Notes under the pieces: model-generated
Database searches by the model: none
Seen by the model: only the letters and a program-made list of their open reading frames with translations
Told to the model about the DNA's origin: nothing
DNA from: Paracyclopina nana
Taxonomy: Eukaryota > Arthropoda > Copepoda > Cyclopoida > Cyclopettidae
Assembly (NCBI GenBank): GCA_019096065.1
Contig: JAGUCH010000001.1
Span: forward strand, 12,214,001 to 12,278,000
Direction: 5' to 3'
Length of the DNA stretch: 64,000 nucleotides
Part shown: piece by piece, positions 13,539 through 64,000 of the stretch
Position numbering within the stretch: the first letter of the stretch is position 1
Layout: each line of letters begins with the position of its first letter
Position numbers and translations under genes: made by a program

Positions 13539-16103
13539 ATGATGATGGTGTACGAAAACACCTTCGAGCGCTGCTTCGAAAGCCCCAACAAGAAGAACGT
13601 CCTGCTGCCCTCGATGACCATCAGCCATGACTCGAAAACGCCTTACACCGATGCCACACAGGTAGGCAGCCCAATTATTAGGCTTTCTTATCCGCCGCCG
13701 CGTAGACGTTGCGCATCGGCCGCGTAGAACCGCTTGATAAATATGTGAAAACCGACAATTGTCAACGTGACAATTAGCCCGTCAGTTCGCGCACACCATC
13801 CATCAAGCCGATCCTAATGAAAATCTCTCATTTCGTGTATGAATTATGGGACGCGTTTTCCGCTCGAGGAGGAAAATTAAGAATCATTATTATTGCGACA
13901 CGACAACTTGGTTTTCTTTTCACCGTTATCCTCGCGGTGGCGAAAAAAGAAACGCGACGAATCCCATGGGAGACCATTGTTGTTGCTGTTGCAAAAATGC
14001 AAACCAGCAGTGCATTTTGCTAATTTGAGGATGAATAATGCATTTTCGCGAGAAAATGTTCAGACAGGTTTTGGCCGATAAGGAAGTTCAATGCCTCCTT
14101 CCACGCAAAAAGTTATCCGACATCTCAACATCATCTTCAGCGTATATACATAGTGCTTTCTAATGCATAACAAGTGCACCGCAGAGCGGCAGCCTCTTCG
14201 GCCACTGACCTCAAAAACTGGCTCGTTTCGGAACAACATCATAAGAGTCATAGTACATGCGCGAGATGGTTCTTGGCGCGCTCAAATTGTCTTCGGGGCA
14301 AATCACGAGCAATTTCTTTTTTGCAAACGAGAAGACCCTAATTTAATTAGACGAGCTCATTTTGCTGCAAGAATTTTTTGCGCGAGCATTTTTTCCCAAT
14401 GCACATTCAAATTCGCAGGCTTCGTGACACGGTGGTTTCCAACCTACATCTCTATCAATTTTAGACTCCTCTCTCATTATCTTGCCTTAACTTTGCACAC
14501 GAGTGACTTGCAAAGATTGACATCTGAATTCGCGACGTCATCCCATCACCACCACTATATGCAGCCGCCAACGTTTTATTAGACAGTGTGGCAACTGACC
14601 TCGGACATTCAGACGAAAAAAGTAGCAGTAGGAAGTCGAAGAATGAAGCTCCGTCGATCGTCTTGAAAAACTTGAAATTGTATGGCAGAAGGGAAAAATC
14701 ACTCTTGCGCCTCATTACGAAAATGTGAGAAATCACGTTTAGCCCATTTGTCTGTCGTGTCGTATGGGACGATCGTGAAATTAAGCGTAGTGCAATACTC
14801 ATTAGGCTGGAAACATCACAGATAAATGTAGGACAAGTAGCTTAATGTTCACCTCACGTTTTCGCCTCTCGATGGCCGCAGCAGTTTGCTGCTACTATAT
14901 AAAGTAATGCGATAATTAATGGCCATTCTCTCAAGGAAGAAGATTGTAAAAATAGAAACCCATTCCCCAGCTGCTAAATCAGTTTGCATTTTGCACAAAA
15001 TTACAGGTCGATGACCCACATCTTCTCCACTTTTTTTGCAGACCAAAAAGCACACGCCCAACCACATCAAGAGGCCGATGAACGCCTTCATGGTCTGGTC
15101 GCAGCTCGAGCGCCGCAAGATCATCGAGGTCACGCCCGACAAGCACAACGCCGAGATCTCAAAGGAACTGGGCCGGAGATGGAAGCTCCTGCCCGAGGAC
15201 GCCCGCCAGCCCTACATCGACGAGGCCGAGAGGCTGCGCATCCTGCACCAGAAGGAGTATCCGGACTACAAGTACAAGCCGCGCAAGAAGCCCAAGTCGA
15301 GCTCGTCCTCCTCTTCCTCCGGCGGCTCACCTTCCTCACCTTCTTCCGGATCTCCCGGCTCACCCAGCCCCATCAAAGCGAGGTCGGATCTCAAGTCGCT
15401 CGACGACAAGTCTCGCACCCTGAGGAAGCACTTGACGGGCATTGACAGGAGGTCAAAGCTGAGGCTGCTCAAAACTGAGGCCGTTCCTCTCCCCGTGGCT
15501 CAAATGACTCCACCCTCGAAGGTCCCCAACTCGCCCATGTGCAGCAGCCCCGAGTCGATCGATGCCGGCTTCTACGACGTGGACGTCATCACCACGTTCA
15601 ACAACAACATCAACGCGGTCAACAACAGCGCGGCCGCCGCGGACGACCAGTATCAGTTCCCCAGTTTCCCGAGTCAGGTGGTGCAAATGCAGCAGCCTCA
15701 GCAGTACGAGGTCAAATTCAACTGCAGCCAGCTTGAGCTGGCCAACAACTACTACACCCACCAGATCACAGAGCAATTCACTGAGGCCGACCTCGACAAG
15801 TTGTCCGAGCTCTTGCCCTTCGACGACACCACACTCCTGGAGTTGAGCAGCCAACAACAGCAACAGCAGCAGCATGCCAACAACAACAGCCTCGCCTGTT
15901 TGGCCTCCCCGTCCTCAGTCAGCAGTAGCGGCAGCTTCCAATGGGACACCACAGCCGTAAGTCAGCCTCAATCATCTGAGAGCAACTTTTTCGAGTTGAC
16001 ATCGAACTACGAGGCCATTCGAGAGCAGCCGGCCGATCACTTGCCACTCCTGGAGTTTGAGATGTCCGATGTGGTCGAGAGCTCATTGACGAAATTCGTC
16101 TGA
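13539..16103 (+). CDS. SoxC: SoxC-family HMG-box transcription factor
   Basis: Predicted join is 13539-13661 and 15042-16103, giving 394 residues. The donor CAG|GTAGGC and the acceptor after a T-rich tract (TTTTTTTGCAG) both fall in phase 0. Exon 1 encodes 41 residues beginning MMMVYENTF. Exon 2 opens just before the HMG box (about residues 49-120), whose [12 protein letters not shown] and [13 protein letters not shown] match the Sox consensus. The box ends in [10 protein letters not shown], as in SoxC proteins (vertebrate Sox4/11/12, fly Sox14). A Ser/Gly/Pro-rich linker follows (about 127-152), then Asn-rich stretches, a short polyglutamine run (about 311-318) and a C-terminal acidic/hydrophobic segment, [17 protein letters not shown], that resembles the SoxC transactivation tail. 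Family knowledge: a minor-groove DNA-binding nuclear regulator of neural and other differentiation. The SoxC assignment rests on the box and tail; the choice among the three consecutive ATGs is arbitrary. Confidence 0.92.
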
Positions 16104-47929: not shown

Positions 47930-48183
47930 GACGGATCGAGGCTAATATTCGGTCCGGCAAAAAGCGCTCGGACGCCACCGGCATTCAAAGCATTGAAAAT
48001 TGTTTACATCTTGTAAGTTGCTGAACCATTTCTTGCCGAGTTTATGCTCCATCCCAAGTGTGCAAAAGTGCAAAAGCCCATCGTCCGTGGGCTCGTACAC
48101 CTTGTGCATCGCTCGAAAGCTGAATTTGAACTAAATCTTCGCTTGTTGCAGAATCAGGTCTTCCCAGCATCCAATTGCACGCT
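47930..48183 (+). promoter_or_regulatory. probable 5' UTR and leader intron of the squid-like gene
   Basis: A good splice acceptor (GCTTGTTGCAG, exon resuming at 48152) lies 32 nt before the start codon. A strong donor, CTT|GTAAGT, begins at 48013, which would define a leader intron of about 139 nt and a non-coding first exon ending at 48012. An alternative donor, GCAG|GTAAGT, lies at 47314. The transcription start is not resolved. Confidence 0.35.
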
Positions 48184-49073
48184 ATGGCCGACGACAGCAC
48201 AAACGGAAACATGGACACCTCGATGGGTGGCGGCGGCATGAACGAGGACGACCGCAAGCTGTTCGCCGGTGGCCTCGCTCAGGAGGCCACTGAAAAGGAC
48301 ATTACTGACTACTTTTCCACGTTCGGTGAAGTGAGCTCCGTCAACCTGAAGATGGACCAAATGACAGGCCGGTCTCGTGGCTTTGCCTTTGTTGTATTTA
48401 AAGAAGTGGACACCTTGACCGCTGTGCTGACAAAAGACCACGTGATCAAGGGCAAGAAAGTGGCCGTAAAGAAGGCCGCGTCCAAGCAGGGCAAGATCTA
48501 CGTGGGCAAGTTCAAGGACTCGGCCATCTCCGAGGACCAAATTCGCGAGCACTTCTCGCAGTACGGCAACGTCGTCGAAATCCAGAGGCCAGTGGACAGG
48601 AGCAAGAACAGTGAGCCCAAAAACTTCTGCTTCGTCACCTTTGACAAGGAGGAAACGGCGAACTCGTTGCTCAAGAAGGGAACACTCACCATCAACGGCC
48701 AGGAGGTCGAGATCAAAAAGGTCACCGTCAAGCCTGACGCTGGCATGATGATGCGCGGAGGCATGCGCGGCGGCATGCGTGGAGGCCGCGGAGCCGGAGG
48801 CTGGATGGGCGGCTATGACGGCGGCTGGGGCTACGGCGGCTGGGGAGGATACGACGGGTAATTTCGACGAAACCTTTTAAAATTCTTCAATTAAAACTCT
48901 TACATAGGCCCCCTGGACCCTGGGGAGGCTACGGCGGCGGATACGGAGCTGGCTGGGGCAGTGGCGGTGGATGGGGTGGAGATGCTTACGGAGGCGGCGG
49001 TAAGATGGCTGGTGGTGGCGGTGGTAGCTTCCGAGGCCGTGGTGGCCGAGGAGGCCGCTCTGCCCCTTATTAG
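48184..49073 (+). CDS. sqd: squid-like hnRNP A/B-type RNA-binding protein
   Basis: Predicted join is 48184-48857 and 48908-49073, giving 279 residues; the 50-nt intron splits a Gly codon. Two RRMs are plain. RRM1 (about 23-95) has RNP2 KLFAGGL and RNP1 GRSRGFAFVVF. RRM2 (about 103-178) has RNP2 KIYVGKF and RNP1 KNFCFVTF. The tail is Gly/Trp/Tyr/Arg-rich with RGG-type repeats and ends SAPY. Two RRMs plus a Gly-rich tail is the architecture of hnRNP A/B/D proteins, and the order and linker resemble Drosophila Squid (Hrp40). Family knowledge: a nuclear-cytoplasmic pre-mRNA/mRNA binding protein acting in splicing, export and mRNA localisation. The second residue of RRM1's RNP2 triplet is AGG where VGG is usual. 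Retention of the intron puts TAA directly after a Gly codon and removes most of the RGG tail. Orthology to sqd rather than another hnRNP A/B member is likely but unproven. Confidence 0.88.
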
Positions 49074-49688: not shown

Positions 49689-51709
49689 TTACAAGATTAT
49701 GTCGCTTATTGCGTTGTAAGAGCCGACAATATGAGAGCCTGGCGTCGATGTACTCGTAGAGTCCTGCAACACTACGAATTGTTCATCGGTGCCACTGCGG
49801 CGCAGCCCGCCATGAGAAGTCATGTGATGCTGCTCCAAGGCCCTTTTCCTGGTGAAGCCTTTGTTGCATACGAGACACTTGTGAGGCAAATCTCCGGTAT
49901 GCAAGGACGCCTCATGAATTCTTAAATTGGCATTGGTGGAGAATTTTTTGGAGCAGAATTTGCACTCGAAATCTTTGGATCCCTCATGCACGGTACGGAT
50001 GTGGCTTTGCAGCTTCGTCTTGTCCGATAGCAAACGACCGCAATGACCACAAGGAAATAGCTTTTTGGGCACGTGCTCTCCAGCTTTGTTTACTTGGTGC
50101 ACTCGTGCTCGATGCCCGTACAAAGACATAGAGGTGGCGTAGCGGGCTGGGCAGTATTCGCAAACGTACGGCCTGTCATTGCTATGCTTGGATTTAATGT
50201 GGTTTTGCAGTGTTGTGCCATTAACAAATCCGTCCTGCAACAACAAACAGATTAACTGAAGCACTTAACGGTGCGGCACTCAAATCGGCATACCTGGCCA
50301 CAAATTTCGCATTTGAAGACCACAGAAGATGTACAAGCGGACCTATGGTACTGCTGATAGTACCAAGTTTTGTAGGTCTTGCCGCAAGCATCACAAGTCA
50401 CCTCGGCTTTGGACAGTTCCCCTCGATGGCTTCGTTTCGCTCCCTCGTGTTTCTCCTTGATATGAGTGGCAAGGGTTTGCGAGTACTTAGCGTCAAAGTT
50501 GCAGTTTTCGTAATTACAATGGAACCTTTGGCCCTTCCCCTCGCCATGCTCCACGTAATTGTGATGATCAAGAAACTTTTGCTGAGAGTAACCCTTATGG
50601 CACACCTCACATGCGAACTTTTTCTCGATGTGATTCTGCGTATGCTCTGAAAATTTTTTTGCACTCATCTTGGATGCACTGCATCTGCAACACTTGTACC
50701 GGTTGGCTTTGTCAGGGCTTTCTTGCTTCAATCTCTCATTCCTGTGCGACAACCTGGATTTCAGGCACAGCGGACACATCTTTGGAACTTTGGTGCTCTG
50801 GAAAGTTAGAATATTTGTAGCGAAATTCCTATGATATTTTGGATACGGCTTTACCATTTCATGCCTCAATGCATGTGCGTTGAAAGCCCTGGCGTGCTTT
50901 AAATGACGAATTGTCTGTAGAGGGCACCCGGGAACGCAGCAGCGGTAAACATACGAGATATTTTCGTTGGCAGGCACCAAAGGAATTCCGAGCCTTCGTT
51001 TGTCAGCCTCGCATCGAATTTCCACTCGGTGTTGAAGAGTCTCTTTGCCGCAGTTGTTGCACAATTGGTCCTGCTCTGCTTTGGTTTCATTGACATCCTC
51101 AGACTCTTGCAACGATGTTTCCACCACGATGTTGCTGTCGTTCTCATGGTGAATAAAAAGGACTTCCCGATCATCGATCTTGACCACGTTAACTTTGGCA
51201 ACAACAGCGTCTTCATTGCTAATCGAAGAGGAAGCAGCATCTTCACTCGACACTGACTGATAGTCGGCATTATTGCTTTCCGTTACTTCCAGGTCATTCG
51301 AAAGGAAGCTTCTTTCTTGATGGACTTCATCTTCTAAAAAAAGTCCGAACATGCTCGTCAAGGCTCTACAGCTATCATGAGCTGTTTCATCGGTGGGCAA
51401 GCAGCCTTTGTACAACGATTCTATGAATAGGCTCAATTGGTCTCTTGAAAATTCAGGTACTGAAATGTGAATCTTGTTATCCTCATTTATGTCGGCGTTT
51501 TCAACCGTGAGTCGGAAGTAATGGCTCGCCAAGCATAGCATCATTTTGTGACACTCGACCGTTTCGTTGTTTTGGCAATGGAAAACGACATCAGTCAAAA
51601 ACTGGCTTCTGAAAAATTGCCGGAACGTTGCAGAAAGTCTTTTGTACCATGGTGGAAAGTCTGCTGGCTTAAACCACTTGGGTCTTTTTAAAGGACTTTC
51701 AGGTTGCAT
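49689..51709 (-). CDS. BTB-domain C2H2 zinc-finger protein
   Basis: Predicted join on the minus strand is 51709-50294 and 50234-49689, giving 653 residues. The donor CAG|GTATGC and acceptor TTGTTGCAG leave a 59-nt phase-0 intron that splits a zinc finger (CEICGQ|DGFVNG, with HIKSKH completing it). An N-terminal BTB/POZ fold is visible at about residues 15-110 (LTDVVFHC, then CHKMMLCLASHYFR). An acidic linker follows, then about nine C2H2-type fingers in the C-terminal half, including FACEVCHKGYSQQKF, YVCEYCPARYATSMSL, FECKFCSKKFSTNANL and HKCLVCNKGFTRKRAL. One finger ends in Cys instead of the last His. BTB-ZF proteins are usually nuclear DNA-binding regulators that dimerise through BTB; the target is unknown. 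I chose the first in-frame ATG; its first 11 nt overlap the end of the upstream TRM10 coding region in another frame. I do not recognise a specific ortholog. Confidence 0.88.
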
Positions 51710-52514
51710 TGTTTTTTGCCACAAATCCAATTTTTTGAGGAAGGCTTTTTTCAAATGCTTCAGGCCAAGACAAACCGCTGAATTTGCTCTGAAGGATTTC
51801 GAAAACTTGATTTATAGTTAGGATTTGCTTGTAGCTTCCGTTGAGCGTTCGCTGACAGTTATCAGCAATAGGAAATTTGGCTGTTTTGATTGATTTTGAT
51901 TGAGCAAACGTCAATGTCGAAAGCTTCTTGACGCTGTCATCAACAAGGCCCCCAATCACGTAGACTTTTGAGATTTCCACCTCGTCAAGAACGTTGTCAG
52001 AATCTGGCGTCAAGTAGACAATTGAATCCAGAGGGAATAGCTCATCCACAGGCTTCTCCGATTGCACGACTAAATAGTTTTTGAAGCCGTCACATTTATC
52101 TGAACAAATGTTGTTGGTTTTGGAGTCAATCTTCAGCGAGGAAAAAGTGAGCTGGCATGGTTTTGTGGCTTTTTTGTTAGCTCCGTAGGTTCTGCTTAAC
52201 TGGCTAGCGAGGTGAGTGAGCTCTTTGTCATTCATCAAGGGCTCAAATTGGAGGTCAACACACACTCGCAAATGAGAGCTGTCGACATTGTCCAGAGCTT
52301 CTTTGAGTTTTTGACGGGCAATGCTGATCAACTCTTTCTTACTGACTCGATTTTGCTCAGATGAGGCGTCAGCGGGTCGGTTTTCCCTCTTTTTCCTCTT
52401 CGCCAACTCCTTTTTGGCTTTTCGTTGGGCTTTGCGACTTTCAAGCACTCGTTTCAGCCTTTCAGCTTTACGCTTTGCATTCTTCGAGAGGGTCTCGGAG
52501 CTCGCGCTTTCCAT
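51699..52514 (-). CDS. TRM10-family tRNA (guanine-N1-)-methyltransferase
   Basis: A single-exon frame of 271 residues starting at the ATG at 52514. The first 60 residues are a Lys/Arg-rich helix, as in TRM10 proteins. The SPOUT catalytic core follows: CVDLQFEPLMNDKEL (86-99), SIVYLTPDSDNVL (164-176), KVYVIGGLVD (183-192) and ILTINQVFEIL (231-241), ending PEAFEKSLP. These are the family's characteristic blocks, with Asp192 at the conserved GGLVD position. Known role: S-adenosylmethionine-dependent N1 methylation of purine 9 in tRNA; animal paralogs are nuclear/cytosolic (TRMT10A/B) or mitochondrial (TRMT10C). No mitochondrial presequence is obvious, so A/B-type is more likely. At 271 residues it is short compared with human TRMT10A (339 residues from memory), mainly because the C-terminal tail is missing. 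The stop codon lies inside the start of the BTB-ZF coding region, so the two may share a transcript. Confidence 0.88.
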   Translation of the reverse strand: MESASSETLSKNAKRKAERLKRVLESRKAQRKAKKELAKRKKRENRPADASSEQNRVSKKELISIARQKLKEALDNVDSSHLRVCVDLQFEPLMNDKELTHLASQLSRTYGANKKATKPCQLTFSSLKIDSKTNNICSDKCDGFKNYLVVQSEKPVDELFPLDSIVYLTPDSDNVLDEVEISKVYVIGGLVDDSVKKLSTLTFAQSKSIKTAKFPIADNCQRTLNGSYKQILTINQVFEILQSKFSGLSWPEAFEKSLPQKIGFVAKNNAT

Positions 52515-54014: not shown

Positions 54015-57000
54015 TTAACGCAAGTCCTCATCATCTTCGTTCTCCTCCTCGGCGATGGCTAAATCAGCCAAGTCTTTTTCCTTTTTATTTTGCAACTCAA
54101 CGAGAACCTGAGCAGAAATTCAATTAGGCTACATTTTACGAGCACGCATACGCGGAGCTTACAATTTGAAAAGGATTTTGAACTCAAACAAAACGAGCTA
54201 TCAAACTAAGTCCTAAAAAAGGAGAAATGAAAAAAAAAAAAAAAATGAATGCTTACGCATACTATGCCACTCTTACCTTTTCATTGAGCACTCGAATGCG
54301 GCCCTCAACTACGGGGTTGAGATGCAGTGATTCAAGGTCACCAATGGTCGTCTGTTTGGTCAACTTGGCTCCTTCTCTTGGTTGGAACTTTTCTGGAACG
54401 TGAGCGGGAAGATGCTGTGTCCCATCCTCAGTCAATTGGCGGACAATGCTAGTCCTGCAAACAATGATTGAGCCTCGTCAATGAGAAGTGAAAGCCAGGA
54501 GCAAAATGCTTTTATGATAACCAAATCAGGTTGATATATGCAGCACTTACTTTCTGGAAAGTGTGACTAGGGACTGGTGATGGACTGATGACCTTCGAGT
54601 CCTTCCTTCACGCATGGCCAATGCAGCAAAGTGATTCTGCACTGCATAGGCCAACGTAGGTCCATTCTCATCATCAATTAGCTGAATAAAAAAAAGGCAT
54701 AGAAAGGACATTTTTCTCTACATAAATCTACGTGCGCAGGCTTACTTGCTTGCACTGGGCCAACACGTCGTAGCCATCTTTTCCTTTGGCCAAGTAGGCC
54801 TTGGTGCAGAGCCTGTACTTTTTCCTGCTCTTCGGGTCGACATCGAGGTATTCATCGCCCACCTTGACGAAAGCCGGATCGACCCTTTTGCCTGCGGGCT
54901 TCTCGGGGTCGAAAGCAAAGCTGATGCCGCTTACTTGCGGGAAACGCCCTTCCAGCTTTGGATACATTGACACTCCGTTCTCCAGGCACTCGAGGAGCTG
55001 TTGGCCAGTCACCTCAAGCAGAACAAGGGGGTCGATCATGGGTAAGATTCTGAGCAAGTCCTTGAGGAAAAATGGTCCGGCAGTGTGCACTGTGTCTGAT
55101 CTGTAGCAAAGATCATCAATACATATATAATACCATATACTTACATAAATGCTCAGGTAAATTATGTACCTGAATGTTCCAGAGTTGATAATTGCGAGGT
55201 CCGCGTTGGTGGCGGCAACCATGATATCACAGACAAAGTTGCCGAGATTAGTCTCTTTGGTGCGGATGACGCTGAAGCGCCCCTCGAGGTCGCATTCGAA
55301 TTCACCCAGTTCCTTGATAAGCTCCATATCCATTTTGTCGGTGTACTTCTCCAAGGCCGAGGCGAGCTCATTGTCGGGCTCAAAATCTTTGGTCACATCC
55401 ACCGAGTCGATCTCGACCACTGGCCTCGTCTCAAGGGTGCCAAAATCCACGGTGAGCACGGAGAATTGGCGGAAGTCAGATCCGCTCTTCAGAACATATG
55501 TTCCATTCACCTATGATACATACGTAGATAAATGGTAAAATCTCAATTTAGACTCGTGATGCGGATTCGATCTGTACCATTTTCTTTTCGTAAACGTGGT
55601 CATGCCCTCCAAGAATGAGGTCTATCTCGGAAGCATTGGCCGCAAGTCTGAGGTCGTTAGGCGTCCTCATATGCGTTAGGGCTATGATGAAATGGCATCC
55701 TTTTGTCCGCAACTCCTTTGCAATGGCTTGACCAGACTCCACATAGTCTGTGTAGGTCACCTCAGAAGGGTTAATGGTGGATAGCGTGTCAAGCCATTCT
55801 TTCTCCACCAAGCCAACCTGAAAAATTCAAAGTTATTGAGCAAAAGTTCACATTCTTTTTGTGCTGCTCGCGTGCGCACTTCAATCAAAGCAGTTTCTCT
55901 CAAATAGGGGCTTTTGCTTCTCCATTCCTTTATACACTTTATGCATCTCTCCGATATAACATCGGCAATTACGTAAAGAACGGAGAAAAAGTGCGGTTTG
56001 ACTTACGAATCCGATTTTCCTTCCAAACCACTCGACAATGTGGGAAACTTTTCCGTCCGCCAAAGGCCGACCAGTCTCGTTGTCTATGACGTTTGACATA
56101 AGCCAAGGAAAGTTGGTTTTTTCCACACGTTCGACAAGTGTGTCGATGCCGAAATCTGAAATCCGGATACAGAACGTACGCTCGGTGCTGCATCTCTACA
56201 ATAAGGGATCAACTCACCAAAATCGTGATTGCCGAATACAGCACAACGTACGTCCAATTTGTTCAAGACGGGAACCATCTGCTCGCCTTTGGTGAAAGTG
56301 CTCACTGAAAAGGCAACAATACATGAATATACTTCAAAGGATTTATATCTTCAGTAGTCATACTTGTTGAAGGTGCAAAACAATCTCCGGAAAAGACAAC
56401 CATGGGTGTAAGGTGGCCATGACTTTTGACTGCGGTCAAAAATCTTGCAGCTCCACCCACAGGCTCCTAAAACAAACGTAATTTTATTACAAGCATTTTA
56501 GCAAAATAAGCTGCAAATATGCTTACCTCCTCTCCAGATTCCACGTTGTAGACATCGTTGAAATGAATCAAGTAGATTTTATCCGCTGCGGGACCCATCT
56601 TATGCTTCGTTTCCAGAGCGGCCTAACAGATAATCAAAATTGGGATATTGTATAAGGGGAAAATCAGCCGCTAGCTTTTGCTATATAGAACTGTTGCTTT
56701 GCTTCTTTTGATTGTAACTAACTTCAAAGAAGTTGGATTCCTATGTGTAATCGGGCTGTAGGATCGATTTTCATGCACACTGCGCGTACACTGAGGGGAG
56801 TGGGCAAGATAAAAATGTGCGTCTGTTGCTGAAGTGATTTAGGTAGCACGTGTGGGTCATTTCTTGGCAAAGTCGCCACACCGTGGCCTAATTTGGAGTG
56901 CGCGGTCGGAATTCTCGAATATTTTGCCATGCGCGTACATCATATACACGCCTTATACTGCATGCCCTTCCGGACAATATAAATACGAGTTTGTGAAAAA

Positions 57001-58270
57001 TGTTGCGTAATTATTATATGATATGTGTACTTCGCTTTAGGTAAGCTTTTTTCTAAGAGATAAATGCACTCGCCTTTGCATTTGTTTGCCTTTTCGCGAG
57101 CTTTTTTACTCTCCCACTACAATATTTGACATATTGCTCGTTTCCTACAGTCAATCCGATTGCGACATTTCCCTGATCTGCATAAGCTCCCCAATAAGCT
57201 TTCCTCAAAGTATGGTCCTCCATAATTAGTACGAGCGTTTTCCATGGCAACTGGTAATCCAATTGCTTGTGCTTTATGGAGGGTCACTTCAGTTCTGTCT
57301 CTGCTTATTTTGTACATAGGTACCGAAGACGAGTTGCAAATTCGGAAATGACGGCGAGTTTGGCCCTTTAAAAATGCTGTACCTTTTTGGCCAATTCGAC
57401 GACGGATGCAAAGCTGCTCGTGACTGCCGAGGATGCATTGGTCGTTGTATTCTTGACTGCAGAGGCTGTATTCAAAGTTGATTCCTTGACTGCGCTGGCT
57501 GCATTTGAGGTGGTGTTCTTTACTGCGCTCGTTGTCTTCAGCGTGGTATCCTTGACCGCCGAGGCTGCGCTCGTCGTGGAGGACTTGACTGCAGAAGTGG
57601 TCTTCTGAGTCGTCTCCTTCACCGTTTTCGTTGAGGTCGACCAAATGGAGGATGATGAATCCACCACCTTCCTCCACCGAAAGGCTACCTTGGCCTTGAT
57701 TCCCTCTGCCTCTTCAGCCGCAGCGGCCTCTTTGGCCGCGGCCTCTTCCTCGTTGTCAACCTCCTCGATGGGGTCCTCGGGCTGAACGCACTTAATGTTG
57801 GGGTCACTCGCGTCCACGGGAGCTGTTGCATCGCTGATCGTCCTCTGCGGCGGTGGAGGCTTTGGTGGCTTGGGCTTCTTGGGCTTGTCCTCCTGGTCGT
57901 GATCCTTGGACTTTTTCTTGTCCTTGCTCCGGCTTTTGGACCTCGATTTATCAGTGCTGGGGCTCTCGGCGCGCTCGCGATGCTTCTTCTTCGGCTTCTC
58001 TGGATCGGCCTCGCCCGACTTGTGCTTCTTATGCTTCTTGTGCGCTTTGTCCTTCGGGACATCCTCAGCGCTTTCGCCCTCCTTTTTCGAAGCCTTTTTC
58101 TTGGCCTTTTCCTCCACAAGCTTGCTGGCCTCGTCCATCATGATCGGTGGTCCAGCATCCTCATCGTCCGACACAGGGATCGAGTTGACCGACTCAGTCG
58201 AGGAGCTCGAGTTGGAATGCATCGTGGCCTTCTTGGCCTTTTTCTTAGCCTCAACAACGGCAGTGGCCAT
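54015..58270 (-). CDS. 5'-nucleotidase-family phosphoesterase with N-terminal 11-mer repeats
   Basis: Eleven coding exons on the minus strand: 58270-57383, 56622-56527, 56466-56364, 56304-56218, 56155-56007, 55817-55578, 55510-55170, 55100-54746, 54681-54551, 54454-54277 and 54107-54015. They total 886 residues; every junction has GT/AG and keeps phase. Residues 1-296 form a disordered Lys/Glu/Ser-rich region ending in six 11-residue repeats (221-286). The metallophosphoesterase domain follows: HFNDVYN (D319), SGDCFAPS (D356), FGNHDFDFGI (387-395), LTHMRTPNDLRLA, LGGHDHVYE. Then comes the 5'-nucleotidase C-terminal domain with SGSDFRQF, NSGTFRSD and AKGKDGYDV, and an acidic end. The family hydrolyses nucleotide or sugar phosphates using two metal ions. 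There is no signal peptide or GPI signal, so it is probably intracellular and not an ecto-CD73. The first metal motif is DxY instead of DxH. A good acceptor 2 nt before the ATG implies a non-coding exon upstream. An internal ATG in exon 2 could give a short form. Confidence 0.87.
57413..57610 (-). repeat. six in-frame 33-bp repeats encoding 11-mers
   Basis: Within exon 1 of the phosphoesterase gene, residues 221-286 read as six consecutive 11-residue units of consensus T-x-x-(T/A)-(T/A)-S-A-V-K-x-(T/S), such as TTSAASAVKDT, TLKTTSAVKNT and TLNTASAVKNT. The period is exact, with no gaps. Eleven-residue Ala/Val/Thr/Lys repeats of this kind form extended amphipathic 11/3 helices in perilipins, synucleins and LEA proteins. 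Confidence 0.85.
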
Positions 58271-59573: not shown

Positions 59574-60149
59574 TTAACGAGTAGGCGCTGCTACCGCCGA
59601 ATCAAGGCTATGGCAGCCGGCGGGATGGTCGCCCACTAATTCACTGAGGAGGCTGGATATTTTACGAGTCGTCTCCTCCTTCGTGGGTAGGATTTGCTCC
59701 GGCCTCTCATCGGGCACTGTGGGCTCTGGAGGTCGTTCCATGAGGTCGTCGCAGTCGCCATCCTCCTCTTCGTCGTCGAGATTGATGTCCTCGACGATGT
59801 CCTCTTCGGTGTCCTCGTCGAGGCCTCTGGTCTCTTCGAATTGGTCGGGACGGCTGTATTCGAAGTCGGTAGCCGAATCTTCGAGGCCCGAATCTCCGCC
59901 GGAGCTTAAAGCTGGTGGACCTCCACCCGACGGGTCTGAGGACAGACTGTCTGAATACTGATCGTTGGCCAAGCCGGTGGGGCTCAAAGGCCTCGGGGTT
60001 GAAGTAGCCTTGGGCGGTGGGACGACCACGTGGGGTTGACTAGTGATGGCAGTAGCATCGTTGTTGTTCTTGTCAAGCTCCAGAGGCTGCACCGCGGCCT
60101 CGTTCGGGGCCCCTCTTGAACAAAGAGGAATGGACTGAAGGACACCCAT
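59574..60149 (-). CDS. acidic protein with N-myristoylation-type N-terminus, unknown family
   Basis: A single-exon frame of 191 residues starting at the ATG at 60149. It begins MGVLQSIPLC: Gly2 with a small or polar residue at position 6 fits an N-myristoylation signal, and Cys10 could be palmitoylated. The middle is Pro/Ser-rich. Residues about 110-136 are strongly acidic (EDTEEDIVEDINLDDEEEDG). The C-terminal 30 residues contain a short amphipathic helix, TRKISSLLSELVGDH. No enzymatic domain is visible and I do not recognise the family. The long uninterrupted frame, the clean ATG and a composition bias unlike its flanks support a real gene. From these features I infer a membrane-tethered adaptor or scaffold. 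It lies on the same strand as its neighbours, but nothing links their functions. Confidence 0.6.
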   Translation of the reverse strand: MGVLQSIPLCSRGAPNEAAVQPLELDKNNNDATAITSQPHVVVPPPKATSTPRPLSPTGLANDQYSDSLSSDPSGGGPPALSSGGDSGLEDSATDFEYSRPDQFEETRGLDEDTEEDIVEDINLDDEEEDGDCDDLMERPPEPTVPDERPEQILPTKEETTRKISSLLSELVGDHPAGCHSLDSAVAAPTR

Positions 60150-61306: not shown

Positions 61307-61380
61307 GGCCCGTTAGCTCAGTTGGTTAGAGCGTCGTGCTAATAACGCGAAGGTCGCGGGTTCGATCCCCCCACGGGCCA
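61307..61380 (+). tRNA. tRNA-Ile(AAU)
   Basis: A 74-nt cloverleaf ending at the discriminator A. The acceptor stem GGCCCGT/ACGGGCC pairs fully. The D arm is GCTCAGTTGGTTAGAGC. The anticodon stem TCGTG/CGCGA closes the loop CTAATAA, giving anticodon AAU (isoleucine, normally edited to IAU). The T loop is TTCGATC. No intron is present. A T7 terminator follows at 61386-61392. The A box (TTAGCTCAGTTGG) and B box are intact. The T stem has one C-C mismatch (GCGGG against CCCCC). It sits on the opposite strand, about 1.15 kb beyond the casein kinase stop codon. Confidence 0.95.
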
Positions 61381-62525
61381 CAATCTTTTTTTCTTTTCTG
61401 TTTGAAACAGTTTTTGTTTTTTAGTTTTAGTTTTGAACAGAAATTACAATTTTTTTGCCTTCGTGGTCACCAAGCTCTTCGCCTTACTTTTAGTGGCTCT
61501 CAATTTTAGACCAAACGTCAAGTCTCCACACAGCAAATGTTACCTTGGTTATGGTACATTTGCTTTGATTAGCTGGAAGATTGTTAGCAAGTGATATCTT
61601 GGCATTCAATTTTAGTAACTTAATCTTGATTTCCCATGGTTTTATATTTTTCTCCTAAACTATTTTGGCTATATTCAACAAAGCTCGTTGCTTGAAACCT
61701 AAGCTCTCGATTGAAATATAGCAAAATCCACTATATTACCAGAAACATAGCCTCTTGAAGTAGAGGAAGAGTCCATTTATCAGACCTTCCTTCGTAGGAA
61801 AGTGATTCTCATGGCTTCAGAATGCGAACTAGTAGCTATGAGGTTAAGAGGTTGGAAAAGTAAATGAACACCTTTTAAAGACGGCGAGTGTGATACTGGA
61901 ATAAAACCTCGAACTGAAAAGGATGAAACCCCGTTCCAAGTTTCAAGTAGTATTTATTACTTCTCCGGTCACAAAATTGGAATTTTCAAGAGTGGTAGTC
62001 TGTAGTTTATCTATTTGTATATACAACACAATTTCGTTAACTATGTTGAACAAAGAATGAAGTCGTGGACATATTCGCATAGAAAAGGTGGTTTTCCTCG
62101 CGAGCTTCTTCTGTTGTGTTTGGTAGTTGGCTAATCAAGGAAGGATTTTTTTTATGTTTTCTAGCATTAGTTGTAATTTATTCATCCTTCAATTTATCAT
62201 CATCGCATTAGCTTTTTTCTGTGAATCTTTTTTTGTGTTCAAATCCAACTTGTTTTGTTTCGCAGCAGAGTAGTAGTTGTAGTATTTTTATAGTAATTGT
62301 GGTAGATTTTAGAATTAAATTGGCGCTGAACTTTTTTTTCTGCTACAAAAAAGTGGGTTTCTTCCAATATATCGATGACTTTAGCGAAAAGAAATGCAAA
62401 AAGTGATGAACTAGCACATAACAAAAAGAGAGAAAATAACCTGATGTCGGATGTGTATGCAGCAGGGCGGGGACGAAACTAATGGTGTGGCTTAAAAAGA
62501 ACAAAAAACGGGGGTGGATAACCTT
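61381..62525. other. tRNA terminator and casein kinase I alpha 3' flank
   Basis: The T-run after the tRNA is its pol III terminator. The rest is non-coding and AT-rich and should include the minus-strand 3' UTR of casein kinase I alpha. A minus-strand AATAAA signal (TTTATT on the plus strand) lies at about 62177-62182, about 345 nt past the stop. Confidence 0.45.
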
Positions 62526-63612
62526 TTAACGTCCAGCAGGGGTGGCGGGTGCTTGCGTGGGGACTGATCCTTCAGCAGCGGCAGAGAGTGCGGCCTTCTG
62601 CTTCAGCATAGTCCAGTCGAAAGTGTAGTCGTACTGGTGGTTAAGGGTGCGGAAGAGAATGCGGAATAGCTGTCGCAAGTACATGTAATCTGGGCCTTCT
62701 TCGAATCGGAGTCCGCGGCAATAGTTGAGATACATGGAGAACTCTGCGGGGTATCCCTTGCACAGCACCTCCACGGGCGTCGACATCTTCTTTTCGGATA
62801 TCTTCTCGTACTTCTGCTTTTTGGTGGCAGCCTTGAGGCCCTGCCAGGGTAGCGATCCACGGTTGAAATACATGAGAACATATCCAAGGGACTCCATATC
62901 GTCTCGCCTGGACTGCTCGATACCCAAGTGAGCATTGATGCTGGCATAGCGCGCGGTTCCAGTCAGATTTTTGTCCTCTCTGCAGATTGAAAGTCCGTAT
63001 TAGTGGCATCATGAATGCATGACGTAGATCAACTACGCATCGAGAAATTGTCAGATAGGGAAGCATTACGCGAAAACATTACCGATAGGTTATATGCTGT
63101 CGAGTGCGGTTGTCGCGGAACTTCTTGGCCAATCCATAGTCGATGAGGAACAACTTGTTACAGTGTCGTCCGATCCCCATGAGGAAGTTGTCAGGCTTAA
63201 TATCCCGATGGATGAAGTTCTTGTTGTGGACAAATTCAATGCGGCCAATCATTTGGTCGGCTAACATGAGCACCGTTTTCATGGTGAATCTTCTGGAGCA
63301 AAAGTTGAAGAGGTCTTCGAGCGAGGGACCGAGCAAGTCCATCACGAGGACGTTGTAATCACGCTCGGGTCCGAACCAGCGGATGTGGGGGATGCCAATG
63401 CCACCCTGGAGGATCTTGTACAGCTTGGACTCGTACAGGAGCTGCGGGTGCCGAGCCTTGATCGACTCCAGCTTGACAGCCACCTCCTCGCCATTGGTAA
63501 TGTTGATGCCAAGGTAAATGTCACCGAACGAGCCGGACCCGATCTTGCGCACAAGCCTGTACTTGGCGCCCACGATGAATTCGGACCTACAGGCCACCGT
63601 AGCGTTCGCCAT
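62526..63612 (-). CDS. CkIalpha: casein kinase I alpha
   Basis: Predicted join on the minus strand is 63612-63083 and 62979-62526, giving 327 residues; the 103-nt intron splits an Arg codon. The kinase domain is complete: P-loop GSGSFGDIY (25-33), VAVK with Lys47, HRDIKPDN (135-142), metal motif DYG (158-160), and the CK1 signature [16 protein letters not shown]. The end, [19 protein letters not shown], is that of animal CK1 alpha, followed by a short Ala/Pro-rich tail without the longer extension of CK1 delta/epsilon. Known role: a constitutively active Ser/Thr kinase that primes beta-catenin and Ci/Gli for degradation in Wnt and Hedgehog signalling and also acts in circadian and DNA-damage pathways. 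Oddities: DYG where I expect DFG, KKF where KKY is usual, and HITYRED where vertebrates have HIPYRED. The start ATG is the first in the exon. Confidence 0.95.
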
Positions 63613-64000
63613 TTTTCAAAAAGAGGTCGACGAGTCGATCAAGGTCTTGCAGAGAGTGATCGTCGGCTAAATCTGGCACTGCGCGTAGCTCTGGATTGAA
63701 AAGAGCTGCTTCGACCTCGGCGGAGGCTGCTAGGTTGTAGCAATGGGGGCCAGAGGGGCGTAGGACTCGATTTCAGACACGATTTCTCAACTTTTTCGCG
63801 ACCTCTCTAGTTGGCAGCCATTTTACACACTCAGCCAGGCAAGTGCCTTGTTTGCGGTGCTACGAGCCTCAAACATTTTTTTTCTCGCCAAACGCTTCAC
63901 GTTTTCCGCCAAACTGCCGCTACAGGAACGTGAGTCACGCAGAGAAAAGTCGCCAAATTGATAACGACGCGTTGCTTTCGCGGAAAGTGGCAATGAGGCA
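63613..64000 (-). promoter_or_regulatory. 5' UTR and promoter region of casein kinase I alpha
   Basis: The interval between the start codon and the window edge is GC-richer than its surroundings and free of long frames, consistent with a housekeeping promoter and 5' leader. No TATA box is evident. The transcription start may lie inside or beyond this interval. Confidence 0.35.

What the first reader, a model, noticed from the sequence alone, without database searches (positions are those of the whole stretch)
57383..58270. Metallophosphoesterase fused to perilipin/synuclein-like 11-mer repeats
Exon 1 (296 codons, phase 0) joins in frame to the phosphoesterase exons. Its last part is six gapless 11-residue repeats with AVK cores. 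In perilipins, synucleins and LEA proteins such repeats fold on lipid surfaces as 11/3 amphipathic helices. A 5'-nucleotidase-type enzyme with such an N-terminus could be recruited to lipid droplets or membranes, with the Lys/Glu-rich stretch as spacer. I know of no described enzyme with this arrangement, but I cannot search for one.
Basis: partly seen in the sequence, partly recalled or inferred. Interest (0 to 1): 0.75.

Follow-up and report, generated by a model that had tools for sequence, protein, structure and literature searches.

The report
Nucleotidase with a perilipin-like repeat tail
An animal gene appears to attach a repeat stretch resembling the fat-droplet-binding part of perilipins to a cytosolic nucleotide-cutting enzyme, which could park the enzyme on lipid surfaces; neither the join nor the lipid binding has been shown experimentally.

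Summary
The sequence feature is real. A 296-codon open exon (58270-57383, minus strand) ends in gapless 11-residue repeats (residues 226-291, a diverged seventh copy at 215) and joins in phase 0 to ten more exons with GT-AG introns. The 886-residue product has two Pfam domains over cut-off, Metallophos and 5_nucleotid_C. The periodicity beats all 10,000 shuffles. Codon choice between repeats is near random while residues are kept, so the repeat looks selected as protein.

Composition and hydrophobic moment (0.24; 36% hydrophobic, 12% charged) lie close to published values for perilipin-4. However, the moment does not exceed a column-permutation control (3164 of 20000), no family model recognises the repeat above controls, and no ortholog, RNA or structure-prediction evidence could be had. 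Methionine 305 in exon 2 could start a repeat-free enzyme.

Best reading: a cytosolic UshA/YfkN-type nucleotidase reversibly recruited to lipid surfaces (confidence 0.4). Corrections: AVK is in five of six repeats; the DxH metal-site histidine is tyrosine.

The parts
57383..58270 (-). Exon 1, residues 1-296, phase 0, donor AAG|GTACAG
57836..58132 (-). Lys-rich basic stretch, residues 47-145 (35 K+R and 19 D+E of 99), with KKxK/KKHR clusters that could serve nuclear targeting
   Evidence: nuclear role inferred
57695..57835 (-). Acidic Ala/Glu-rich stretch, residues 146-192 (15 D+E, 3 K+R of 47)
57596..57694 (-). Basic, aromatic-bearing segment before the repeats, residues 193-225 (moment 0.347 at 11/3); its last 11 residues are the diverged repeat unit at 215
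57398..57595 (-). Six gapless 11-residue repeats, residues 226-291, with a 22-residue superperiod
56623..57382 (-). Intron 1, 760 nt; no AATAAA, ATTAAA or TATAAA between 57370 and 56623, weaker variants CATAAA, AGTAAA, AAGAAA once each; one TATATA at 56687
56527..56622 (-). Exon 2; Met305 at 56598 in good start context (AAGATGG) could start a repeat-free enzyme; holds the NDVY motif (Asp319, Tyr321)
55578..56466 (-). Exons 3-6 (56466-56364, 56304-56218, 56155-56007, 55817-55578), most of the metallophosphoesterase domain (domain match residues 315-517)
54746..55510 (-). Exons 7-8 (55510-55170, 55100-54746), with the 5'-nucleotidase C-terminal domain (match residues 603-749)
54015..54681 (-). 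Exons 9-11 (54681-54551, 54454-54277, 54107-54015), end of the enzyme and a C-terminal tail rich in charged residues, stop at 54015

Best explanation
One polypeptide. Exon 1 gives an N-terminal tail: a basic Lys-rich stretch, an acidic stretch, then about 90-110 residues of weakly hydrophobic 11-mer repeats and their flanks. Exons 2-11 give a two-domain nucleotidase of the UshA/YfkN type without a secretion signal in front of it. The tail is unfolded in solution and folds into a long 11/3 amphipathic helix only on a lipid surface (lipid droplet, nuclear envelope or ER), which holds the enzyme there reversibly. There the enzyme would remove nucleoside monophosphates, such as AMP from acyl-CoA synthetases or CMP from phospholipid synthesis. 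Shown: the sequence, the periodicity, the domains, the open joined frame. Inferred: the splice, the folding on lipid, the location, the substrate.
For: Joined frame with ordinary splice sites. Periodicity 0 of 10,000 shuffles. Residues 226-291: mean hydrophobicity 0.177, moment 0.240, 36% hydrophobic, 1.5% aromatic, 12% charged, net +4, against Plin4 0.257, 35%, 0.2%, 15% (PMC5889406 Table 1). The 11/3 harmonic is the largest of five (0.24 against 0.08-0.19), and the moment exceeds residue shuffles (0, 3 and 0 of 5000 for residues 212-296, 221-286 and 204-296). Val at position 3 in 7 of 7 units, Lys at position 4 in 6 of 7. Residues kept while codon choice is near random (47 of 86 equal residues share a codon, 41.7 +/- 3.8 expected, 220 of 2000 reach it); TRF finds no 33-base repeat. 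A synuclein helix of 85 residues reaches droplets slightly better than the Plin4 4mer. CCT-alpha is a precedent for an enzyme.
Against: Column-permuted repeats reach the same moment in 3164 of 20000, so the amphipathic order is not evidence beyond the period. Leu at position 8 lies on the polar side. Plin4 needed more than 66 residues, in practice about four 33-mers, to reach droplets in HeLa cells; this repeat is 66-88 residues, so borderline. The register does not continue significantly into exon 2. Codon usage does not single out the exon 1 frame: three of its five other frames score higher. No ortholog could be examined, no transcript data, structure prediction never ran.
Confidence: 0.4

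Rival explanations
1. Two products: exon 1 belongs to a separate short gene or an alternative transcript, and the enzyme is made mainly from Met305 in exon 2 by a promoter in intron 1, without the repeats.
For: Exon 1's frame ends in its own stop four codons after the donor. Met305 lies in good start context and one TATATA lies at 56687 in intron 1. The catalytic core begins just after Met305 (Pfam match from residue 315).
Against: Exon 1 ends in a usable donor in the matching phase. No AATAAA, ATTAAA or TATAAA occurs in intron 1, while all three occur within 700 nt after the enzyme's stop; weaker variants do occur in intron 1.
Confidence: 0.25
2. The N-terminal tail is joined but is an ordinary disordered, basic, Ser/Thr/Lys-rich segment for nuclear targeting or protein contacts, and it never binds lipid; the 11-mer period is a relic of repeat growth.
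For: KKxK/KKHR clusters in the Lys-rich stretch. Column permutation gives equal moments in 3164 of 20000. No family model above controls.
Against: Val and Lys columns are nearly invariant and the DNA repeat has decayed while the residues stay, which argues for selection on this spacing.
Confidence: 0.2
3. The repeats form a right-handed hendecad coiled coil that makes the enzyme an oligomer.
For: 11-residue period with small apolar residues on one side; hendecad coiled coils are recalled, not tested.
Against: The face is mostly Ala and Thr with one Val per turn of repeat and few Leu or Ile, poor for a coiled-coil core.
Confidence: 0.1
4. The repeats are a stress-protection (LEA-like) or ice-binding type of 11-mer helix that shields the enzyme during drying or cold.
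For: LEA group 3 and type I antifreeze proteins have 11-residue periods (recalled); LEA_4 weak match of 8.7 bits, E 2.1.
Against: LEA_4 cut-off is 51.1 bits; the repeat is not Ala-dominated (16 of 88 residues).
Confidence: 0.05

Closest known systems
Perilipin-4 11/33-mer amphipathic helix (also perilipins 1-3 and synuclein)
   Same: 11-residue period without gaps, Thr/Val/Lys-rich, very few aromatics, low hydrophobicity and moment, Lys beside the apolar face
   Different: 66-88 residues instead of 968; superperiod 22 rather than 33; Ala and Ser prominent and no Gly, where Plin4 is enriched in Gly; no perilipin family match; joined to an enzyme
[quoted passage not shown]
   Same: An enzyme with an 11-mer amphipathic helix that reaches nuclear envelope/ER and lipid droplets
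   Different: Unrelated catalytic fold (recalled); its helix is at residues 236-294 of 368, 49% charged and with moment 0.48, where this one is N-terminal, weakly charged and near 0.24
UshA / YfkN / CD73 type 5'-nucleotidases
   Same: Metallophos + 5_nucleotid_C architecture; Asp319, Asp356, Asn388, His389, His490, His513, His515 and Arg635 kept
   Different: No secretion signal in front of the catalytic part (by eye); first motif NDVY instead of NDxH; a 300-residue N-terminal tail that matches nothing else found in this genome
Exchangeable apolipoproteins (22-mers made of two 11-mers)
   Same: 22-residue superperiod; sub-threshold PF01442 match, E 0.0015, on the repeat
   Different: 18.7 bits against cut-off 90; a column-permuted control reaches E 0.0012; no proline between units; no sign of secretion

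Membership tests
5'-nucleotidase (UshA/YfkN) family | Metallophos domain followed by 5_nucleotid_C domain above curated cut-offs | tested here: met
   PF00149 31.6 bits (cut-off 21.5) and PF02872 122.5 bits (cut-off 23.6)
5'-nucleotidase (UshA/YfkN) family | Complete set of metal ligands DxH, D, NH, H, HxH (recalled from UshA/CD73) | tested here: inconclusive
   All kept except the DxH histidine, which is Tyr321; in 80 aligned prokaryotic relatives that column is E in 56, H in 20, Y in 1 (L032), G 1, K 1, gap 1
5'-nucleotidase (UshA/YfkN) family | Hydrolysis of nucleoside 5'-monophosphates | not testable with these tools
   Needs an enzyme assay
Perilipin (PF03036) | Match to the perilipin family model | tested here: not met
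   No PF03036 match in the 886-residue protein at E <= 1 nor in residues 197-304 alone at E <= 10
Perilipin-type 11-mer helix (works like) | Gapless 11-residue repeats with hydrophobicity and moment near Plin4 | tested here: met
   against published Table 1; approximate, as scale values are from memory and the averaging differs
Perilipin-type 11-mer helix (works like) | Segregation of apolar and polar residues beyond what the period itself gives | tested here: not met
   3164 of 20000 column permutations reach the observed moment, though residue shuffles hardly do
Perilipin-type 11-mer helix (works like) | Lipid-induced helix and lipid-droplet localisation | not testable with these tools
   Needs bench work
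Apolipoprotein A1/A4/E (PF01442) | Family match above cut-off and above controls | tested here: not met
   18.7 bits, cut-off 90; 1 of 5 column-permuted controls gives the same family at E 0.0012
LEA group 3 (PF02987) | Family match above cut-off | tested here: not met
   8.7 bits, cut-off 51.1
Synuclein | Match to a synuclein family model | tested here: not met
   No synuclein family among matches at E <= 1 or E <= 10; HMMER's filters drop most weak matches

The most novel reading that the evidence does not exclude
A cytosolic nucleotidase of the UshA/YfkN family has acquired a perilipin-4-like 11-mer helix and acts on lipid droplets or the nuclear envelope, clearing AMP or CMP made by lipid synthesis there: a second, independently evolved enzyme of the CCT design, in an animal in which an exon-wise search found no perilipin gene above threshold.
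Probability: 0.25. Interest if true: 0.65.

Novelty: new variant of a known kind. Interest (0 to 1): 0.42.

Why it matters
If true, it would link nucleotide hydrolysis directly to lipid surfaces and give a compact natural test of how short and how weakly hydrophobic an 11-mer helix can be and still target a lipid droplet. It would also show that the 11-mer lipid-sensing tail has been fitted to unrelated enzymes more than once (CCT-alpha, this one).

Tried and rejected
Perilipin family search of the whole genome: the only hit (E 0.0105, 19.9 bits, cut-off 33, L011) lies in a frame that looks by eye like spectrin/nesprin repeats; rejected. The search is exon by exon and can miss a real perilipin, so absence is not shown.

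A second copy of the repeat in the genome: at E <= 10 only one other match, 26% identical, E 0.34, in a low-complexity frame (L013). Exon 1 whole: only itself at E <= 0.001.

Exon 1 against solved structures: two matches at E 1.1 and 3.7, taken as chance.

Apolipoprotein match of the repeat (E 0.0015): rejected because controls reach the same level (1 of 5 column-permuted sequences at E 0.0012 for the same family; 1 of 5 residue shuffles at E 0.0055 for another family).

Continuation of the 11-mer register across the splice junction as evidence for the join: not significant; 11.7% of 48,690 translated 6-mers of the window and 9.4% of 6-mers from residue 307 onward score as well.

Codon usage as evidence that exon 1 is translated: not discriminating; three of the five other frames of the exon (one sense, two antisense) score higher than the true frame.

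Relatives: viral contigs, 5 stretches matched a pattern and none was a relative. Genome contigs, 92 relatives of the catalytic part, 80 kept, best segments 22-34% identical. These are prokaryotes and the query held the catalytic part only, so they say nothing about the tail.

Structure prediction of residues 181-296 was asked 12 times and the machine was busy each time. The species was not identified: rRNA searches unanswered, COX1 family not found in the assembly. PADLOC scan of exon 1: nothing. SrfC-family match of exon 1 in NCBIfam (E 0.2, 11 bits against 500) taken as chance.

Literature: searches for a nucleotidase or phosphoesterase with such repeats returned 0 papers (at least 3 of 4 terms) found 2 and listed 1, an unrelated review. 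Searches under two automatic annotation names for animal members, the names recalled from memory, gave 0, 0, 3 and 5 papers, seen as listings only. Searches are listings of 7 and 8 papers; of these I saw passages of PMC5889406 and PMC8064757, and no whole text.

Full report
What is there. On the minus strand an open frame runs from ATG 58270 to a stop at 57370-57368 (300 codons). Cut at the GT after codon 296 it joins in phase 0 to exon 2 at 56622, and ten GT-AG introns give an 886-residue protein ending at 54015. Introns 2-10 are 59-189 nt, intron 1 is 760 nt. The window lies in a 91.95-Mb, 10-contig assembly. I take it for an animal from its spliced genes and a Sox-like HMG-box frame (PF00505; 'Sox' by recall); the species was not found.

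The enzyme. Pfam gives two domains over cut-off, Metallophos (residues 315-517) and 5_nucleotid_C (603-749), and Metallophos_2 under its cut-off. Of 39 solved sequences matched, the best is a 5'-nucleotidase (2z1a, E 2.6e-45), then snake-venom 5'-nucleotidase (3.2e-30); CD73 follows (1.8e-27). NCBIfam's best models are the YfkN-like multifunctional nucleotidases and UshA, all far under their cut-offs. Nine matches to PF02872 fall at five places in the genome, one of them this gene. The other four resemble this protein at 25-30% apart from one 16-residue piece at 75%. One of them, L002, begins with a signal-like stretch and NDIH, by eye. No secretion signal precedes the catalytic part of the window's gene, by eye.

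Active site. I aligned one open frame from each of the 80 prokaryotic loci kept. Asp319 is kept in 77, Asp356, Asn388 and His389 in 79 each, His490 in 79, His513 in 74, His515 in 70 and Arg635 in 78. The DxH histidine column, Tyr321 here, is Glu in 56, His in 20, Tyr in 1 (L032, Nitrospinota), Gly in 1, Lys in 1 and a gap in 1 (some row labels printed are off by one and one search has the right ones). That these are metal ligands is recalled from UshA and CD73. The enzyme is probably active, with an altered first metal site.

The repeats. Units in register are KTVKETTQKTT (215), SAVKSSTTSAA (226), SAVKDTTLKTT (237), SAVKNTTSNAA (248), SAVKESTLNTA (259), SAVKNTTTNAS (270) and SAVTSSFASVV (281). 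In residues 212-296 identity is 0.42 at lag 11 and 0.56 at lag 22. Two unit types alternate: those at 215, 237 and 259 have an acidic residue at position 5 and Gln or Leu at position 8, those at 226, 248 and 270 have Ser or Asn and Ser or Thr there, and the last unit is diverged. None of 10,000 shuffles reached 0.556 at any lag from 2 to 33. AVK is in 5 of 6 units. Among pairs of the six units, equal residues share a codon in 47 of 86 cases against 41.7 +/- 3.8 when synonymous codons are dealt out anew (220 of 2000 reach 47), and TRF sees no 33-base repeat. So the repeat looks old, with its residues kept by selection, which also argues that this frame is translated. The test has little power and is an inference.

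Likeness to lipid-binding helices. On an 11/3 wheel positions 2, 6, 10, 3, 7, 11 (98 to 262 degrees) are mostly Ala, Thr/Ser, Thr/Ala, Val, Thr and Ala/Thr. Lys at position 4 (294 degrees) sits beside that face. Positions 1, 5 and 9 are polar, and Leu at position 8 is misplaced. For residues 226-291 I get hydrophobicity 0.177, moment 0.240, hydrophobic 0.36, aromatic 0.015, charged 0.12, net +4. PMC5889406 Table 1 lists moment, hydrophobic, aromatic and charged fractions for Plin4 as 0.257, 0.35, 0.002, 0.15; synuclein 0.30, 0.47, 0.02, 0.24; Plin3 0.35, 0.37, 0.01, 0.23; CCT-alpha 0.48, 0.32, 0.10, 0.49 (passages). My scale values are from memory and the paper averages over consecutive helices, so the comparison is approximate. 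In the passages read, the Plin4 helix is unfolded in solution, needs more than 66 residues to reach droplets, is lost from droplets by T-to-S changes and made promiscuous by T-to-V changes, and an 85-residue synuclein helix binds slightly better than the Plin4 4mer. Its Lys residues lie on one side next to the apolar face (PMC8064757 passages). The window's repeat is thus of the Plin4 kind, near the lower limit of length, with an aromatic-bearing basic segment in front (residues 193-225, moment 0.347).

Results against. The moment exceeds residue shuffles (0, 3 and 0 of 5000 for three choices of stretch), but permuting the 11 columns alike in all six units gives as large a moment in 3164 of 20000 trials. 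The period is significant; its amphipathic order beyond the period is not. No perilipin or synuclein match; LEA_4 8.7 bits against 51.1; the apolipoprotein match is equalled by a control. Exon 2's first residues do not significantly extend the register, and codon usage does not favour the exon 1 frame over its other frames.

Is it one protein? For: matching phase; splice sites typical of this gene (donor in the top 2.9% of GT sites, acceptor in the top 9.8% of AG sites; GTACAG also at intron 6); no AATAAA, ATTAAA or TATAAA between the exon 1 stop and exon 2, while all three occur within 700 nt after the true stop, although weaker variants occur in intron 1. Against: Met305 in exon 2 has a good start context, the catalytic domain begins at about residue 315, and one TATATA lies in intron 1. 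I put the join at about 0.75. Even if it is made, a shorter form may coexist.

How it would work. Shown: sequence, periodicity, domains, open joined frame. Inferred: the tail folds on a lipid surface and holds the enzyme there; the basic stretch (35 K+R of 99) adds electrostatic or nuclear targeting, as recalled for CCT-alpha; the enzyme removes AMP or CMP made by lipid synthesis. The last step is a guess from pathway knowledge.

Known or new. A nucleotidase or metallophosphoesterase with such a tail was not found in the searches and 70 of an open-access library. That is weak evidence of absence, and orthologs could not be looked at.

Noticed in passing
56554-56562 (-), residues 317-321 region of exon 2: The usual DxH metal-site histidine of 5'-nucleotidases is Tyr (Tyr321) in this enzyme; among 80 prokaryotic relatives the column is mostly Glu (56) or His (20), Tyr only in a Nitrospinota frame.
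   Followed up: partly
15015-16100 (+): Long frame with an HMG box (PF00505, E 7.2e-24), Sox-like by recall.
   Followed up: no
49692-51811 (-): BTB-domain frame (50255-51811) followed directly by a C2H2 zinc-finger frame (49692-50264); perhaps one BTB-zinc-finger gene with an intron.
   Followed up: no
51702-52514 (-): Frame with a tRNA (guanine-1)-methyltransferase domain (PF01746, E 5.8e-27), TRMT10-like by recall.
   Followed up: no
48130-48858 (+): Frame with RNA recognition motifs (PF00076, two stretches), hnRNP-like by recall.
   Followed up: no
62529-63615 (-): Protein kinase domain at 63082-63615 (PF00069, E 3.6e-21); the frame at 62529-62999 has no Pfam match at 0.01 but reads by eye like its continuation, casein-kinase-like.
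   Followed up: no
61307-61381 (+): tRNA-Ile, anticodon aat.
   Followed up: no
59574-60149 (-): 191-codon frame rich in acidic, Pro and Ser residues beginning MGVLQS (possible N-myristoylation signal, by recall), no Pfam family at 0.01.
   Followed up: no
L006, L008 (genome contig C4 about 7,549,300-7,549,700): One of the four other 5'-nucleotidase-family places shows in-frame TAA in its matched stretches, from intron read-through or a decayed copy; not resolved.
   Followed up: no
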